From contig VGRW01000020.1 of the NCBI GenBank assembly GCA_016875225.1, positions 1 to 50,940 on the forward strand: a DNA stretch of 50,940 bases, in the 5' to 3' direction. This document shows, piece after piece, positions 9,277-16,710 of this stretch. The notes under the pieces are model-generated. The model was not told the DNA's origin and searched no databases. It saw only the letters and a program-made list of their open reading frames with translations. The stretch's first letter is position 1. Every line of letters begins with the position of its first letter. Origin of the DNA: Deltaproteobacteria bacterium (GTDB lineage: Bacteria > Myxococcota_A > UBA9160 > SZUA-336). The position numbers and the translations under genes are program-made.

Positions 9277-9777
9277 CTACTTCGCGACGGCCTCGACCGC
9301 GAACGTCTCACTCTGCGCGAAGTGGACCGGGCCAGCGTCGAAGTCGAGCTCGAGCGCGTAGACGCCGTCGCCTGCGTCGGGCGGCACGGCCACGAACACG
9401 TCGACCACCCAGCGTCCCGGGCGCAGGTCGTACTGCGGCTCGGGAACCGTGCCGATCGCCTTGCCGCGGTGCAGGATCTTCATCTCGAGCCGGCCCGTCA
9501 CCACCTCGGTCGGGGCGGTGGTGCAGAGCGCGTACACCATTCGGTGACCGACCTCGCCGCCGGGCCGCACGCGCTTGGGCCAGACCTCGACCCGCTCGAG
9601 CTTGAACCAGGGGAGCTTCTGCTCGGCGCAGAGGAACTCCGCCGCGACCTCCTCGGGGAAGTCTTCGAGCTTCTGTCCGGGCGTGCGGAACGGCCGGTCG
9701 AGCGGCGCGGGCAGCGACGCACACGCCGTGCAGGCGAGCGCGAGCAGAAGCGCGACTAGCGCCTTCGGATCACCCAA
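9277..9777 (-). CDS. Small hypothetical lipoprotein downstream of the Ser/Thr kinase
   Basis: 166 residues if started at the TTG at 9777, which has GAGGAG about 7 bases upstream and gives a leader (LVALLLALACTACAS) typical of an exported lipoprotein. The mature part has two further Cys (FLCAEQKL and YALCTTAP) that could form a disulphide, and an immunoglobulin-like beta pattern; I do not recognise the family. The start overlaps the last 22 bases of the kinase gene, so it is translated from the same mRNA. An ATG or GTG start in this frame would require starting far inside the kinase gene, hence the TTG choice. It is convergent with the WS/DGAT gene, with about 20 bases between stops. Confidence 0.6.
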   Translation of the reverse strand: MGDPKALVALLLALACTACASLPAPLDRPFRTPGQKLEDFPEEVAAEFLCAEQKLPWFKLERVEVWPKRVRPGGEVGHRMVYALCTTAPTEVVTGRLEMKILHRGKAIGTVPEPQYDLRPGRWVVDVFVAVPPDAGDGVYALELDFDAGPVHFAQSETFAVEAVAK

Positions 9778-11078
9778 CTCGCTTCTCCTCGCGGCGACTC
9801 TGCCGCGGGCTCCGTCGACTTGCTCGGCGCGGCCGCTGCGCGGGGTGCGGGCGCCGCCTTCCGGATCGGAGCCGCGCTGGCCGTCTTCGCGCCGCCGGCG
9901 CTGGGCGCGGCCACGACGGGCGCGGCCACGGCCGCTGCGGGCTGCGCCGCGCTCGGTCGCGTCGACGCCGCGGTCTCGACTCGCTTCTCGTGCCGCACCA
10001 GCCGCACCCCGAACAGGAACGCAATCAGGAGCAGCCCGCAGGCGGCGAGCGCGATCCGGCCGCGGCCGCGCTCCGGCCGCGCGGGCTCGCATTCAGACGC
10101 CGGGCTGCGGAGCTCGCGCGTGAGCGCGTGCGCGTCGACGCTTCGCACCGAGGTCGCCGGCGTGATGCTCCGCGTGCTGGCGAGCGCGATCTGCTCGGCC
10201 TCTTCGAGCGCGAGCTCGCGCGTCACCGGGGCCTCGCGCTCCGCACTCCTGCGCGCCAGCGCGCCGCGGCGCCACGCGTCCTGGAGCGCGTCTCCGAGTT
10301 CGCGCACCCCGGGGAAGCGCTGGCTCGGGTCCTTCGCGAGCGCGCGCAGCACGACGTCCTCGAGAGGCGCGGAAAGATCAGGGACGAGCGCTCGCAGCGG
10401 GCGCGGCGCGTCCTCGATCTGCGCGCGGCAGAGCTGGTAGTCGTTCTCGGAGTCGAACGGGAGCTCGCCGCCGAGCAGCTCGTAGAGCAGGACGCCGAGC
10501 GCGTACACGTCCGAGCGCGCGTCGGTCTCGTCGCCGCACCCCTGCTCGGGCGACATGTACTGCATGGTTCCGACCATGTGGCCCTGGCGCGTCGCGCGAT
10601 CCGTGCCGAGGCAGCGCGCGATTCCGAAGTCCATCACCTTCACGCCGCCGTTCGTCGCGAGCATCAGATTCGACGCCTTGATGTCGCGGTGCACGATCCC
10701 CGCCTGGTGCGCGTGGTCGATCCCGGCGATCGCCTGCTGCACGAGCGGAAGCGCGCGCTCGGGCTCGAGCCGCCCGGAGCTGGCGAGGATCTGCGCGAAG
10801 GTCCGCCCCTCTACGTACTCCATCACCATTCCCAGGTGCCGCTCCTCGCGGAGCAGGCAGTACAGAAGCGCGACGTTGGGGTGGATCAGCTTGGCCAGGG
10901 TGCGCGCCTCCGACTGGAAGCGCTCGACCACCTCGGGGCGATCGCCGAGCCCCTCGCGCAGGAACTTGATCGCCACATTGCGTCCGAGCAGCGGATCGCT
11001 CGCCCGGTAGACGTCGGCCACGCCCCCAGAGCCGATCTTCTCGGCGATCTCGTAGCTGCCGATGGTGATCCCGATCAT
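9756..11078 (-). CDS. Membrane-anchored Hanks-type serine/threonine protein kinase
   Basis: 440 residues from MIGITIGSYEIAEKIGSGG. A complete kinase domain: glycine loop at 16-24, VAIK with Lys38, HRDIKASN with Asp132, DFG at 150-152, GTMQYMSPEQ activation segment and SDVYALGV. Residues 270-340 are a charged linker, 342-361 a transmembrane helix (IALAACGLLLIAFLFG), then an Ala/Pro-rich tail on the far side of the membrane with no recognisable sensor domain. The catalytic domain is cytoplasmic. All catalytic residues are present. No strong ribosome-binding site precedes the ATG; the chosen start sits 7 residues before the first kinase strand. The substrate is unknown. The gene is divergent from the zinc-finger/histone-fold gene and overlaps the small lipoprotein gene. 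Confidence 0.93.
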   Translation of the reverse strand: MIGITIGSYEIAEKIGSGGVADVYRASDPLLGRNVAIKFLREGLGDRPEVVERFQSEARTLAKLIHPNVALLYCLLREERHLGMVMEYVEGRTFAQILASSGRLEPERALPLVQQAIAGIDHAHQAGIVHRDIKASNLMLATNGGVKVMDFGIARCLGTDRATRQGHMVGTMQYMSPEQGCGDETDARSDVYALGVLLYELLGGELPFDSENDYQLCRAQIEDAPRPLRALVPDLSAPLEDVVLRALAKDPSQRFPGVRELGDALQDAWRRGALARRSAEREAPVTRELALEEAEQIALASTRSITPATSVRSVDAHALTRELRSPASECEPARPERGRGRIALAACGLLLIAFLFGVRLVRHEKRVETAASTRPSAAQPAAAVAAPVVAAPSAGGAKTASAAPIRKAAPAPRAAAAPSKSTEPAAESPRGEASWVIRRR

Positions 11079-11223
11079 GTCGCGAGTGGTATCGGAAGCC
11101 CCCGGATGGCACTTGATCGCGCGCCCGTGCACGACGAGCGGGCGCGCTTGCGCCTGACCTGCCGGCGCGCTGCCGATCGCAGTATCCTCGCCGCGCGAAT
11201 TCCACTGGACGCGGAGGCACGGC

Positions 11224-11745
11224 ATGAGCGAGGCGAGCGCGAGCTTCTGGCGACGCTGCAGCAGCTGCAAGAAGGAGATCGGCTTCACGCGGACCTTCTG
11301 GGTCTGCAGCGTCTCGACCTGCAATCGCAAGCGCACGGGTCTCGTGTTCTGCACGACGTCGTGCTGGGACGTCCACCTGCCGCTGATGAACCACCGCGAG
11401 GCGTGGGCCGAGGAGCGGCGCGCGCCGACGCGCGAGGCCTGGCTTCGCGAGCAGGCGGAAGAGGCGGCGAGCGCGTCGTCGTCCGCGCCGGCCGCCGCGA
11501 GCCCGCCCGCGCGCGAGCCGCAGCGCCGCATCGCGTCCGCGGCGCGCGCGCCCGCGCCCCGGCCGCCGCGCGAGGTGCTGGTCGTCGTGTCCAAGCTCAA
11601 GGCCTACGTGCGCGAGCGCTCGGGAATGAGCACCTCCGACGCCGTGATCGAGCTGCTCTCCGACAAGCTCCGCGACCTCTGCGACGACGCGATCCAGAGC
11701 GCGATGCGCGACGGCCGGCGCACGGTGATGGAGCGCGACTTCTAG
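11224..11745 (+). CDS. Zinc-finger protein with C-terminal histone-fold-like domain
   Basis: 173 residues. Residues 12-57 carry Cys12, Cys15, Cys28, Cys33, Cys43, Cys47, His51 and His57, a pattern able to bind two zinc ions in a cross-brace (ZZ/MYND-like). A low-complexity Ala/Pro/Arg linker (about 80-116) follows. The last 57 residues, from EVLVVVSKLKAYVRERSG through STSDAVIELLSDKLRDLC to GRRTVMERDF, have the helix-strap-helix-strap-helix layout of the histone fold; GRRTVMERDF closely resembles the archaeal histone ending GRKTVKAEDI. GGAGG lies 6 bases before the ATG. The gene stands alone, divergent from the kinase. A DNA-binding or chromatin-like role is inference. Zinc-finger histones have been described among bacterial histone families, but membership was not tested. 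Confidence 0.75.
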   Translation: MSEASASFWRRCSSCKKEIGFTRTFWVCSVSTCNRKRTGLVFCTTSCWDVHLPLMNHREAWAEERRAPTREAWLREQAEEAASASSSAPAAASPPAREPQRRIASAARAPAPRPPREVLVVVSKLKAYVRERSGMSTSDAVIELLSDKLRDLCDDAIQSAMRDGRRTVMERDF

Positions 11746-11803: not shown

Positions 11804-12700
11804 ATGCCGAAAATCGACGCGAACGGGATCCGGATCGAGTACGACAGCTTCGGGGATCGCGGCGCCGAGCCGCTGCTCCTGGTGATGGGCCTGGGCGGGC
11901 AGATGCTGCTCTGGGAGGACTCGTTCTGCGCGGCGCTCGCCGAGCGCGGTCACTTCGTGGTCCGCTTCGACAACCGCGACATCGGGCTCTCGACCCACTT
12001 CGATTCGCACGGAATCCCCGACCCGATCGCGCTGATGACCGCGGCGGCGAGCGGAGAGCCGGTGTCGGTGCCGTACACGCTCGACGACATGGCCGACGAC
12101 GCGGTCGGGCTCTGCGACGCGCTCGGGATCCGCGACGCCCACTTCGTCGGCGCTTCGATGGGCGGGATGATCGTGCAGACCGTCGCGATCCGGCATCCCG
12201 CGCGCGTGCGCAGCCTGGTCTCGATCATGTCCACGACCGGAAATCCCGCGCTCCCGCCGGCGCGGCCGGAGATCCTCGCGCTGCTGATGAGCCCGCCTCC
12301 GGTCGGACGCGAGGCCGCGATCGACGCCTCGGTCGAGATGTGGCGGAAGATCGGCAGCCCCGGCTTCCCGTTCGACGAAGCGCTGATCCGCACGCGAAGC
12401 GCTCTGCTCTACGACCGCGCGAATCACCCCGCGGGGCAAGCGCGCCAGCTCGCCGCGATCCTGGCGCACGGCAATCGCGCGCCCCGGCTCGCCGACGTCC
12501 GCGCGCCCGCGCTCGTGATCCATGGAACAGACGATCCGCTCGTGCCGGTCGAAGGCGGCCAGGACACGGCGGCCTCGATTCCGGGCGCCGAGCTGCTGCT
12601 GATTCCCGGAATGGGCCACGACATGCCGCGCGCGATCTTCGCGCGGCTCGTGGACGCGATCTCGAGCCACACCCACAAGGCCGCGGTCGCGCGCGCCTAG
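11804..12700 (+). CDS. Alpha/beta-fold hydrolase
   Basis: 298 residues starting MPKIDANGIRIEYDSFG. It shows the hydrolase elbow GASMGGM with nucleophile Ser118, the acid in HGTDDPLVP (Asp243) and the base in GMGHDMP (His272), giving a complete catalytic triad. LLLVMGLGGQ forms the oxyanion-hole strand. The sequence resembles the small esterases and RdmC-like methylesterases of the alpha/beta family; the substrate cannot be assigned. There is no ribosome-binding site, and a TTGAC-type promoter lies immediately upstream. The stop codon TAG shares the four bases CTAG (12697-12700) with the stop of the convergent topoisomerase-helicase gene. Confidence 0.9.
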   Translation: MPKIDANGIRIEYDSFGDRGAEPLLLVMGLGGQMLLWEDSFCAALAERGHFVVRFDNRDIGLSTHFDSHGIPDPIALMTAAASGEPVSVPYTLDDMADDAVGLCDALGIRDAHFVGASMGGMIVQTVAIRHPARVRSLVSIMSTTGNPALPPARPEILALLMSPPPVGREAAIDASVEMWRKIGSPGFPFDEALIRTRSALLYDRANHPAGQARQLAAILAHGNRAPRLADVRAPALVIHGTDDPLVPVEGGQDTAASIPGAELLLIPGMGHDMPRAIFARLVDAISSHTHKAAVARA

Positions 12701-15700
12701 CCGCTCCGAACGATCTCGAGCAGGGCAGGGCCGTATTTCGCGGCGAGCGCCGGGCCGATGCCCTTCACCGCGAGCAGCGCGCGCTCGTCGCGAGGCCGCG
12801 AGGCCGCGATGCCCTGCAGAGCCGCGTTGGTCATGACGCGGAACGCGGGAATCCGGCGGCGCTTCGCCTCGGCGCCGCGCCAGCGCATCAGCGCCCCGAG
12901 GAGCGCGCCGTCCAGGCTCTGATCGGCGTCGGACCCGGGCGCGCTGGCGCCTGCGCTGCCGCGCGCGCGCCTCGTCCGCGCCGGGACGGCCGCGGCATCG
13001 CGCGCGCCAGCGCGGCTCCGGGCGCGGCGCTTGCGCGGCGCGCGCTCCGCCTCGCTCTCGCGCTCGACGCGCACGGCCGCGAGCGCCTCGGCCCCGGCTT
13101 CGAGACCGGCTCGCGTCAGCCGCAGGCGCGAGAACGCGATCGTCTCGCCGTCGCGCTCGAACTCCGCGCTCTCCTCCACCGCGAGCCCTGCGCGCACCAG
13201 CCCCGAAACCAGCCGCCCGAACTCGCTTCGGTCCAGCGCCTCGCCGAACACCTCTCGGTGTAGCTTTCCCGAGGGCTGGCCGTTCCGCGCCCGGAGCGCG
13301 GCGACGATCCGCTCGAGCGCATCGCGCTGGCCCGGGTCGAGCGCGGCGAAGCCGAGCGCCTCGCTGCCCTCGGCGTTGCAGATGTCGCAGATCCCGCACT
13401 CGACGCCGGAGTCCGCCTCGTCGCCGAAGTGGCGCACGAGCTGGAGCATGCGGCAGGCGCGGCTTCCGGCGTAGCGGTGGATCTGCTCGAGCTGCGCCTT
13501 CTTGTGGCGCTGCTGCGCCAGGTACGGCTCGCGCCAACCGTCGCGCCCGCGCGAGGCGTTCTCGTCCGCGTCGACCAGCGCGCCTCCGTGCACCCAGAGC
13601 TTGTCGAGCACGCGCTCGAGCTCGTCGGGGTCCATGCGCAGGCTGCGCTGCAGCTCGGCGCGCGGCGCGGGCGCGGCGCCGAGCGCGCGGTAGACGCGCT
13701 CGAGCACCGCGACGTCGGGATAGTCGCGCGCGAAGAAGTGCTCGTGCGTGCGCAGGTCGACGAAGCCGTGGAAGAGAACCGCGCGCGAGAGCGCGCCGTC
13801 GCGCCCGGCGCGGCCGATCTCCTGGTAGTAGCTCTCGACGCTGCTCGGCAGCGCCGTGTGCACGACCGTGCGCACGTCCGCCTTGTCGATCCCCATGCCG
13901 AAGGCGATCGTGGCGACGATCACCTCGAGCGAGCCGGCCATGAAGCGGCGCTGCACCTCGTCGCGCTCGCGCGCGGGCATTCCCGCGTGATACGCGGCGG
14001 CGCGGAAGCTGCGGTCGAGCCGGGACGCGAGAAGCTCGGCCTTCTTGCGCGTCGGCGCGTAGACGATCGCGGGCCGGCGAGCGGGCGAGCGCAGCAGCCG
14101 CTCGCAGGCGGCGTCCCGCGCAGACGGCTTCGCCTCGACGAGCTCGATCGCGATGTTCGTGCGCCGGAAGCCGTGGATGTAGCGATGCGCCTTGTCGATC
14201 CCGAGCTGCGCGACGATGTCGCGCTGCACCAGCGGCGTGGCCGTCGCGGTCAGCGCGATGATCGGCGCGGGCCGCAGCGCCGGCAGGCGCTCGCGCAGCA
14301 TGCGGTACTCGGGCCGGAAGTCGTGCCCCCACTGCGAGATGCAGTGCGCCTCGTCGACCGCGACCAGCGCCGGCGTGCGCTGCGCCAGCTTCTCGGGGAA
14401 GCCAGGCACCGCCAGCCGCTCCGGCGCGATGAACAGGTAGTCGAGCTTCCCGTCGAGGTACGCGCGGAGCACCGCCTGCGACTCGGCGCGCGCGCGTCCG
14501 GAGTGGATCCGCTCGGCGCGAAGCCCCTGCGCCTGCAGCTTGGCGACCTGGTCGTCCATCAGCGCGATCAGCGGAGAGACGACCAGCGTCGTGCCGCCGC
14601 GCGCGAGCCCGGGAAGCTGGTAGCAGAGCGACTTTCCCGCGCCGGTCGGCATCACGAGCAGGGCGTCACCGCCGAGTGTCACCGACCGGCAGACCTCTTC
14701 CTGGAACGGGCGGAAGCTCTCGAAGCCGAAGCGGCGCCCGAGCAAGCCGAGCAGCTGGTCGGGCGCGGTCGCCGTCTGCGGCGCGTCGCGCTCGCGCTCG
14801 AAGGCGAACGGAAGCTGCGGCGCCGCGGCCGCCGGCCGTTCGGTCCGCACGCGCTTCACCACGTCGCTCACGTACGTCTCGATGTCGCGCATGAAGCTGT
14901 CGAGATCGCCCGAGCCGCGCTGGATGCGCTCGAGCCGCGCCTCCCACTGCCCGGTCATCAGCGGGCTCTTCACGTCGGGATGCACGATCTCGATCAGCTC
15001 CACGCCCTTGTCCGTCGCCGCGAGGGACTTTCCGTCGCGCGTGATGTACTTGCGCTCGAGCAGCGTCTCGATGATCGAAGCGCGCGTCGCCGGCGTCCCC
15101 AGGCCGGTCTCGCGCATCGCCTCGGAGAGCTCGCGGTCTTCGAGCGTGCGGCCCGCGGTCTCCATCGCCGTGAGCAGCGTCGCCTCGGTCAGGCGCCGGG
15201 GAGGGCGCGTGCGCTTGCGCTCGGCCCGGGCGTCGACGACGTCCTGCGGCTGTCCCGGCGCGAGCCCCGGGGGCAGGAGCGGCTCGGAGTCCGCGCTCTG
15301 CGCGCCCTCGAGCGCGCGCCAGCCGAGCGTCACGACGGCGCTTCCCTGGCTGCGATAGCGGTCGACGATCGGCGTCGGCTCCGAGCTCGTGATCGCGGTG
15401 ACGACGGTCGTGGTCGCGTAGACGTGATCCGCGTGCCAGGCCGCGAGCAGGCGCCGCGCGACCAGATCGAAGAGCCGCGCCTCGTCGGCGGAGAGGCCGG
15501 CCTTCTCGGGCGATTGCCCGGTCGGGATGATCGCGTGGTGGTCGCTCACCCGGGCGTCGTCGACGAAGCGCGGGCCGAGCGGCCGCTCGCCGGCTCCGGG
15601 CGCGAGCTGCTCGCGATACGGTCCGGAGATGGCGCTCGCGATCCTCGGCAGCGTAGCCGCGACCGACTTCGAGAGGTGCCGGCTGTCCGTGCGCGGGTAG

Positions 15701-16710
15701 GAGAGCAGCTTCTTCGACTCGTACAGGCTCTGCGCGACCTCGAGCGTGCGCGTCGCGCTCCAGCCGAAGATCCGGTTCGCCGCGCGCTGCAGCTCGGTCA
15801 GGTCGTAGAGCTGGGGCGGCGGGAGCCTGCGCCGCTGGGCCTCGACCGATTCGATCGCGGCGCGACCCGAACGCGCGCGCGCGACGATCCGCTCCGCCTC
15901 CTCGCCGTCGGCGGGCAGACGCCGCGCGAGCTCAAGGGTCTCGGGCTCGGCGCCGGGCGCGCCGGGGCGGAACCAGGTGCCGCGGTGGCCCGGCGCCGTC
16001 TCGGGCGCTCCGTGCGCTCGGAAGTCGGCGACCACCTCGACGTAGTCCTCGGGAACGAAGGACCGGATCGCGAGCTCGCGCTCGACCAGGATCGCCAGCG
16101 TCGGCGTCTGCACGCGCCCGACCGAGAGCAGCTCGCCGTGCGACGACGAGCGACGCAACAGCGTGTAGGCGCGCGAGAGGTTCATGCCGACCAGCCAGTC
16201 GGCGCGGCTGCGCCCGCGCGCGGCATCGGCCAGGCCGTCGACCTCCGACTGCGGGCGCAGTCCGGCCAGCCCCGCGCGGATCGCGTCGGGCGTGAGCGAG
16301 GAGATCCAGAGCCGCTCGACCGGCTTGGCCGCGCGCGGCGCGGCCAGCCCCGCGGCCTCCCAGATGTAGCGGAAGATCAGCTCGCCCTCTCGGCCTGCGT
16401 CCGTCGCGCAGATCACGCGCTCGACCTCGGGGTCGGCCAGGATCCGCCGCACGATCTCGAACTGGCTCTTCGTCTTCTCGTAGACCACGAGCGGCCAGCG
16501 CTCCGGGATCATCGGCAGCAGCGTCTGGCGCCAGGCGCGCCACTCGGGTCGGATCTCGTGCGGCTGCGCGAGCGCCACCAGGTGCCCGATCGCCCAGGTG
16601 ACGACGTAGCCGTTTCCGCGCAGGCAGCCGTCGCCGCGCGTTCCGGCGCCCAGCACTCGCGCGATGTCGCGCGCGACCGAGGGCTTCTCAGCGACGACCG
16701 CTATGCTCAT
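12697..16710 (-). CDS. Natural fusion: DNA topoisomerase III - RecQ helicase - HRDC
   Basis: 1337 residues in one frame without interruption. Residues 1 to about 625 are a type IA topoisomerase of the TopB kind: SIAVVAEKPSVA start, Toprim DAGREGE (104-110) and active-site Tyr338 in LLSYPRTDS. Residues about 650-1180 are RecQ: Walker A MPTGAGKS (687-694), DEAH box 786-789, TATATP, QEIGRAGRDG and the Cys-rich zinc site ending CGICDIC. After a basic low-complexity linker, an HRDC-like domain ends the chain (RDERALLAVKGIGPALAAKYG). RecQ/BLM/Sgs1 helicases and topoisomerase III act together to dissolve double Holliday junctions and undo recombination intermediates; here both are covalently joined. 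All catalytic motifs look intact. It is a monocistronic gene, convergent with the hydrolase. Confidence 0.95.
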   Translation of the reverse strand: MSIAVVAEKPSVARDIARVLGAGTRGDGCLRGNGYVVTWAIGHLVALAQPHEIRPEWRAWRQTLLPMIPERWPLVVYEKTKSQFEIVRRILADPEVERVICATDAGREGELIFRYIWEAAGLAAPRAAKPVERLWISSLTPDAIRAGLAGLRPQSEVDGLADAARGRSRADWLVGMNLSRAYTLLRRSSSHGELLSVGRVQTPTLAILVERELAIRSFVPEDYVEVVADFRAHGAPETAPGHRGTWFRPGAPGAEPETLELARRLPADGEEAERIVARARSGRAAIESVEAQRRRLPPPQLYDLTELQRAANRIFGWSATRTLEVAQSLYESKKLLSYPRTDSRHLSKSVAATLPRIASAISGPYREQLAPGAGERPLGPRFVDDARVSDHHAIIPTGQSPEKAGLSADEARLFDLVARRLLAAWHADHVYATTTVVTAITSSEPTPIVDRYRSQGSAVVTLGWRALEGAQSADSEPLLPPGLAPGQPQDVVDARAERKRTRPPRRLTEATLLTAMETAGRTLEDRELSEAMRETGLGTPATRASIIETLLERKYITRDGKSLAATDKGVELIEIVHPDVKSPLMTGQWEARLERIQRGSGDLDSFMRDIETYVSDVVKRVRTERPAAAAPQLPFAFERERDAPQTATAPDQLLGLLGRRFGFESFRPFQEEVCRSVTLGGDALLVMPTGAGKSLCYQLPGLARGGTTLVVSPLIALMDDQVAKLQAQGLRAERIHSGRARAESQAVLRAYLDGKLDYLFIAPERLAVPGFPEKLAQRTPALVAVDEAHCISQWGHDFRPEYRMLRERLPALRPAPIIALTATATPLVQRDIVAQLGIDKAHRYIHGFRRTNIAIELVEAKPSARDAACERLLRSPARRPAIVYAPTRKKAELLASRLDRSFRAAAYHAGMPARERDEVQRRFMAGSLEVIVATIAFGMGIDKADVRTVVHTALPSSVESYYQEIGRAGRDGALSRAVLFHGFVDLRTHEHFFARDYPDVAVLERVYRALGAAPAPRAELQRSLRMDPDELERVLDKLWVHGGALVDADENASRGRDGWREPYLAQQRHKKAQLEQIHRYAGSRACRMLQLVRHFGDEADSGVECGICDICNAEGSEALGFAALDPGQRDALERIVAALRARNGQPSGKLHREVFGEALDRSEFGRLVSGLVRAGLAVEESAEFERDGETIAFSRLRLTRAGLEAGAEALAAVRVERESEAERAPRKRRARSRAGARDAAAVPARTRRARGSAGASAPGSDADQSLDGALLGALMRWRGAEAKRRRIPAFRVMTNAALQGIAASRPRDERALLAVKGIGPALAAKYGPALLEIVRSG

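What the first reader, a model, noticed from the sequence alone, without database searches (positions are those of the whole stretch)
11224..11745. Bacterial protein joining a two-zinc cross-brace finger to a histone fold
Eight Cys/His ligands (12, 15, 28, 33, 43, 47, 51, 57) form a likely cross-brace finger, and the last 57 residues follow the histone-fold helix and loop plan, ending in GRRTVMERDF, very like the archaeal GRKTVKAEDI. Histone folds are uncommon in bacteria. The finger could bring the DNA-binding or dimer domain to another protein, giving a chromatin-like or signalling link. The finding rests on the C-terminal alignment by eye; a related 'zinc-finger histone' class has been described in bacteria, so novelty may be limited to this lineage.
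Basis: partly seen in the sequence, partly recalled or inferred. Interest (0 to 1): 0.8.

Follow-up and report, generated by a model that had tools for sequence, protein, structure and literature searches.

The report
Bacterial histone with zinc-finger arm
This bacterial gene encodes a DNA-binding histone with a two-zinc finger at its front end, a member of the already described "ZZ histone" family; the less ordinary points are that its finger also exists as a free-standing protein in relatives and that the same genome carries a second, archaeal-type histone.

Summary
Window 11224-11745 (+) encodes 173 aa: a finger (residues 9-68; ligands C12 C15 C28 C33 C43 C47 H51 H57), a variable linker, and a C-terminal histone fold (117-172). 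The histone part matches the crystallised Bdellovibrio histone HBb (E 5e-10; AlphaFold/Foldseek rmsd 0.7 A). All eight ligands are invariant in 62 of 62 relatives. The protein is a ZZ histone, a class named in 2024, so it is a new member of a known kind.

Most likely mechanism: a dimer grips DNA as HBb does (8 of 10 DNA-contact residues kept or conservatively replaced), and two tethered fingers bind a partner. The acidic pocket of eukaryotic ZZ domains is absent here and replaced by a conserved basic loop, so histone-tail reading is unlikely.

New points:
- The Pfam ZZ profile does not match the finger.
- The finger occurs alone as 63-73 aa proteins in at least 21 of 380 genomes of the phylum, some beside a Fam20C-like kinase gene.
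- Three relatives carry two histone folds behind one finger.
- In this class 41 of 41 ZZ-histone genomes also have another histone: 17 HBb-type, and 24 (this one included) an archaeal-nucleosomal-like 70-aa type reported as archaea-only. The two never co-occur.

The parts
11213..11217 (+). ribosome-binding site GGAGG, 6 nt before the ATG
   Evidence: read directly
11224..11745 (+). ZZ histone gene, 173 aa
   Evidence: relatives (48 of 60 nearby genomes match at E<=0.001; 164 stretches)
11248..11427 (+). cross-brace zinc finger, residues 9-68; Zn1 C12 C15 C43 C47, Zn2 C28 C33 H51 H57 (pairing inferred from the ZZ fold)
   Evidence: ligands invariant in 62/62; AlphaFold2; Foldseek best match p62 ZZ 5yph, prob 0.96, E 0.068
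11428..11565 (+). flexible linker, residues 69-114, with a conserved RR(I/L) motif at 101-103
   Evidence: 18% mean pairwise identity; R101 in 43 of 62, 30 of 30 in the nearest set
11572..11739 (+). alpha3-type histone fold, residues 117-172 (a1 122-133, a2 140-162, a3 170-172)
9756..11078 (-). divergently transcribed Ser/Thr protein kinase, 145 bp between the two start codons; context only, shared by the same-genus genome but not by other relatives

Best explanation
The gene encodes a ZZ histone. Two chains pair through the HBb-like histone fold, and the dimer binds (probably bends) DNA without sequence preference through minor-groove backbone contacts. Each chain carries, on a flexible 45-residue arm, a two-zinc cross-brace finger whose conserved basic loop binds a partner. 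The protein therefore acts as an accessory chromatin adaptor that tethers that partner to DNA already organised by the cell's second histone. Shown by computation: the fold, the ligands, retention of DNA-contact residues, the flexible linker, and the second histone in the genome. Inferred: dimerisation, DNA bending, zinc content, that the finger binds a protein, and the tethering role.
For: Histone fold. Of HBb's ten main DNA-contact residues (PMC11317129) the window protein keeps six (S123, K124, K126, S138, T167, R171) and has two conservative changes (R130, R166); two differ (V122 for T8, S136 for N22). The RD clamp R165-D172 is invariant in 62/62, and the dimer-core positions are hydrophobic. 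Finger: ligands invariant, mean pairwise identity 61% against 18% in the linker, lowest dN/dS of the three parts, ZZ folds are the top Foldseek hits. The finger also exists without any histone, so it has a binding function of its own. Linker pLDDT falls to about 63 between the two confident domains. The genome has a second histone.
Against: No experiment exists on any ZZ histone's DNA binding or finger partner in the papers read here. In Bdellovibrio the ZZ histone is weakly expressed (PMC11390915). Net charge of the histone domain is 0, less favourable for DNA than typical histones. No conserved neighbouring gene points to a partner. The AlphaFold work was on monomers only.
Confidence: 0.55

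Rival explanations
1. The finger is a second nucleic-acid-binding site. Its basic loop (N34 R35 K36 R37) and R58 contact DNA or RNA, so each dimer bridges or clamps two stretches.
For: Finger net charge +6. K16, R35 and R58 are basic in 59-62 of 62 relatives, R37 in most; p62's acidic pocket residues are not present. Stand-alone fingers keep the CNxxR loop and RHR.
Against: ZZ, MYND and RING cross-brace fingers, the closest folds, are mostly protein binders. Doublet relatives manage with one finger per two histone folds, which does not demand a bridging pair.
Confidence: 0.3
2. The finger reads the tail or end of the second histone, as eukaryotic ZZ domains read histone H3.
For: In this class all 41 ZZ-histone genomes also carry another histone.
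Against: That histone is present in 52 of 53 genomes whether or not a ZZ histone is, so the co-occurrence is uninformative. The acidic pocket needed for N-terminal recognition (D129, D147, D149 in p62) is not conserved, as Schwab et al. also found. The 70-aa partner histone begins only 3-4 residues before its fold and has no long tail. Fingers persist in f45 genomes in which no histone was found.
Confidence: 0.08
3. The histone fold is only a dimerisation module, as in TAF or NF-Y subunits, and the protein does not bind DNA itself.
For: Neutral net charge of the domain; TAF-like uses of the fold exist in eukaryotes.
Against: DNA-contact residues of HBb and the RKT/RD-clamp loop are kept across 62 relatives, which dimerisation alone would not require.
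Confidence: 0.07

Closest known systems
ZZ histones (alpha3 histone family; Schwab et al. 2024, PMC11390915; type example D0LYE7 of Haliangium ochraceum; Bdellovibrio also has one)
   Same: N-terminal two-zinc finger with C4 and C2H2 sites, disordered linker, C-terminal bacterial-dimer-like histone with truncated alpha3; Myxococcota/Bdellovibrionota distribution
   Different: Only lineage-level divergence. The paper's text lists D0LYE7 ligands C51/C53, while every sequence here has C-x3-C at that place, which would put the sixth ligand at C55 (possibly a misprint; D0LYE7 itself not examined). The paper counts a second histone in 50% of ZZ proteomes; in this class it is 41 of 41 genomes.
Bacterial dimer histone HBb (Bd0055), PDB 8cmp/8fvx/9ezz/9f0e
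   Same: Histone domain: 48% identity, rmsd 0.7 A, same a2 length, three-residue a3, same DNA-contact set
   Different: HBb has no finger and no linker; in a tree of 64 histone domains ZZ domains lie apart from stand-alone HBb-type ones (support 88/96, below the tool's strong mark; few columns)
Eukaryotic ZZ zinc fingers (p62, p300, HERC2, BIG)
   Same: Six Cys then two His in cross-brace order; best Foldseek matches
   Different: Pfam ZZ (PF00569) does not match the window genome even at E 10; spacing C-x4-C, C-x3-C and H-x5-H is longer than the C-x2-C pairs usual in ZZ (recalled), partly MYND-like; acidic peptide pocket not conserved, basic loop instead

Membership tests
ZZ histone | N-terminal finger with eight ligands forming C4 and C2H2 sites | tested here: met
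   62/62 invariant
ZZ histone | ZZ-like structure of the finger | tested here: met
   AlphaFold2; Foldseek ranks 1-5 all p62 ZZ, best prob 0.96 but E only 0.068
ZZ histone | C-terminal bacterial-dimer-like histone fold with 3-4 residue alpha3 | tested here: met
   a3 = residues 170-172
ZZ histone | binds two zinc ions | not testable with these tools
   needs metal analysis
Pfam ZZ domain (PF00569) | sequence match to the curated profile | tested here: not met
   none at E<=10 in own genome; window protein no Pfam match; not among the 25 listed families for 62 relatives
Eukaryotic ZZ reader | acidic pocket for N-terminal residues (D129, D147, D149 of p62) | tested here: not met
   by alignment order S13 stands in place of D129 and N34-R37 in the D147/D149 loop (p62 residues; equivalence by eye)
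DNA-binding histone (HBb type) | minor-groove contact residues and RD clamp | tested here: met
   6 of 10 identical, 2 conservative, clamp invariant
DNA-binding histone (HBb type) | dimer in solution, binds and bends DNA | not testable with these tools
   monomer prediction only
Face-to-face histone | tetramer via conserved R and N of alpha2/L2 | not tested
   closest relative by sequence is HBb (dimer), not HLp; no multimer prediction available

The most novel reading that the evidence does not exclude
The finger is an autonomous bacterial chromatin-adaptor domain, not recognised by the Pfam ZZ model, that exists alone (63-73 aa), fused to one histone fold, or fused to two, in bacteria whose main histone is otherwise either HBb-type or an archaeal nucleosomal-type protein. 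ZZ histones would then be dedicated adaptor histones of a bacterial chromatin with interchangeable core histones.
Probability: 0.3. Interest if true: 0.7.

Novelty: new member of a known kind. Interest (0 to 1): 0.4.

Why it matters
Bacterial histones have only recently been shown to organise chromosomes, and the finger of ZZ histones has no known partner. The stand-alone fingers give a small, separable protein on which the partner can be sought, and their charge pattern argues against the obvious histone-tail-reader idea. The observation that a whole bacterial class keeps either an HBb-type or an archaeal-nucleosomal-type histone, never both among 53 genomes, makes the interchangeability of the two chromatin types testable.

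Tried and rejected
Conserved operon partner for ZZ histones: all-against-all of ORFs from 78 loci plus the window found none outside close clades; the divergent kinase is shared only by the same-genus genome. Pfam ZZ as the finger's family: no match. The finger profile against PDB sequences gave nothing significant. A first search suggested that the ZZ histone was the only histone of the genome; a PF00808 search corrected this. MAG contamination as the source of the second histone was rejected because it is in 31 of 53 near-complete genomes of the class, in eight families.

Full report
What was checked. The ORF at 11224-11745 (+) encodes 173 aa, has a GGAGG site 6 nt before its ATG, 96.5% GC at third positions, and is under purifying selection: dN/dS 0.40, 0.26, 0.39 and 0.63 against four relatives, with the finger lowest in each comparison (0.09-0.33) and the linker highest (0.47-1.3). 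The synonymous differences are large in some pairs, so these ratios are rough.

Histone part. phmmer against PDB sequences matches residues 116-172 to HBb of Bdellovibrio bacteriovorus (8cmp, E 5.4e-10; 8fvx) and residues 113-173 to HLp of Leptospira (9qt0, E 1.5e-6). The AlphaFold2 model from 62 relatives has helices 122-133, 140-162 and a three-residue 170-172, and Foldseek ranks HBb first (rmsd 0.7 A over 56 residues, target-normalised TM 0.88), then HLp and the archaeal HTkC, then eukaryotic nucleosome histones. A truncated alpha3 of 3-4 residues is the defining mark of the alpha3 histone family (PMC11390915). Of the ten residues that contact DNA most in HBb (PMC11317129), six are identical here and two conservative, and the R165-D172 clamp is invariant in 62 relatives.

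Finger part. All eight proposed ligands are invariant in 62 relatives, and 78 of 80 loci fetched by name fit the exact spacing. The finger modelled alone is closest to ZZ domains of p62 (prob 0.96 but E 0.068), with p300, BIG and MYND domains further down. Pfam's ZZ model gives no match at E 10 in the own genome, so the name rests on structure and ligand order, not on sequence homology. The p62 pocket that holds N-terminal residues uses D129, D147 and D149 (PMC6197226). By ligand order these places hold S13 and the N34-R35-K36-R37 loop here, a charge change that argues against reading of N-terminal or histone-tail peptides. Schwab et al. also report that the pocket is not conserved.

Family. 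The protein is a ZZ histone. Relatives are in 48 of 60 nearby genomes (including matches to histone-only proteins) and in 164 stretches of the 84,980-species collection, of which 80 were fetched, nearly all labelled Myxococcota, Bdellovibrionota, Deltaproteobacteria or unnamed proteobacteria, one Binatota. Labels such as Klebsiella and Spirochaeta there are MAG names and look mistaken. In a tree of histone domains the ZZ domains, including those of doublets, lie apart from stand-alone HBb-type domains (support 88/96, rough because of 56 columns), compatible with one fusion event. No gene neighbour is conserved.

Beyond the known family. (1) At least 21 of 380 genomes of the phylum, in ten families, carry the finger in an open frame too short for a histone; eleven such proteins of 63-73 aa were read. 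In several families they lie next to a Fam20C-like kinase gene and a TlpA/AhpC-type redoxin gene. In family f45 the protein ends just after the finger, and the searches found no histone of either type in those genomes. (2) Three relatives, in three families, have finger plus two histone folds in one chain (L115, L116, L117). (3) The window's genome has a second histone of 70 aa on contig C40 (PF00808 47.4 bits). Its best solved relative is archaeal HPhA (E 9e-6), its L1-to-RKT spacing is four residues longer than HBb's, and its tail runs nine residues past the clamp Asp, so by both length criteria of PMC11390915 it is nucleosomal-type, which that paper states is found only in archaea. It is in 31 of 53 genomes of the class that are at least 90% complete; HBb-type stand-alone histones are in 21 others (all in family f4); none has both, and one has neither. 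All 41 ZZ-histone genomes of the class have one or the other, but since 52 of 53 genomes do anyway, this is not evidence of a functional link.

Mechanism. Best supported: a DNA-gripping histone dimer with two fingers on flexible arms that bind a separate partner. DNA gripping is well founded by conserved contacts; dimerisation is expected from the fold; the nature of the partner (protein, or DNA/RNA through the basic loop) is open. The free-standing fingers show that the finger's task does not need the histone fold.

Verdict. Observation confirmed, interpretation supported, novelty limited to a new member of a known kind. The stand-alone fingers, the doublets and the class-wide nucleosomal-type histone are the parts a specialist may find new; I did not find them described in the papers searched, which do not include subscription journals or preprints.

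Noticed in passing
G000:C40:28644-28853 (+), outside the window (L113 1498-1710): A second histone, 70 aa, with full-length alpha2 and alpha3 like archaeal nucleosomal histones (closest PDB HPhA). Present in 31 of 53 near-complete genomes of this bacterial class, mutually exclusive with HBb-type histones; nucleosomal histones are described as archaea-only.
   Followed up: partly
L118-L128 (eleven loci, ten families): Free-standing versions of the ZZ-histone finger, 63-73 aa, without any histone fold; no Pfam match for the one tested (L126).
   Followed up: partly
L118-L122, L126, L127: Several stand-alone finger genes lie next to a Fam20C-like kinase gene and/or a TlpA/AhpC-type redoxin gene, a neighbourhood kept across families.
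   Followed up: partly
L115 989-1735, L116 992-1702, L117 1014-1823: ZZ histones with two histone folds in one chain (237-270 aa), likely intramolecular pseudodimers with a single finger.
   Followed up: partly
window 12697-16710 (-): One 1337-aa protein joining a topoisomerase III-type enzyme (Toprim + Topoisom_bac) to a RecQ helicase with HRDC domain, reminiscent of the eukaryotic Top3-Sgs1/BLM pair; partly seen in the same-genus genome.
   Followed up: no
window 9756-11078 (-): Ser/Thr protein kinase transcribed divergently from the ZZ histone with 145 bp between the starts; retained in the same-genus genome only.
   Followed up: yes
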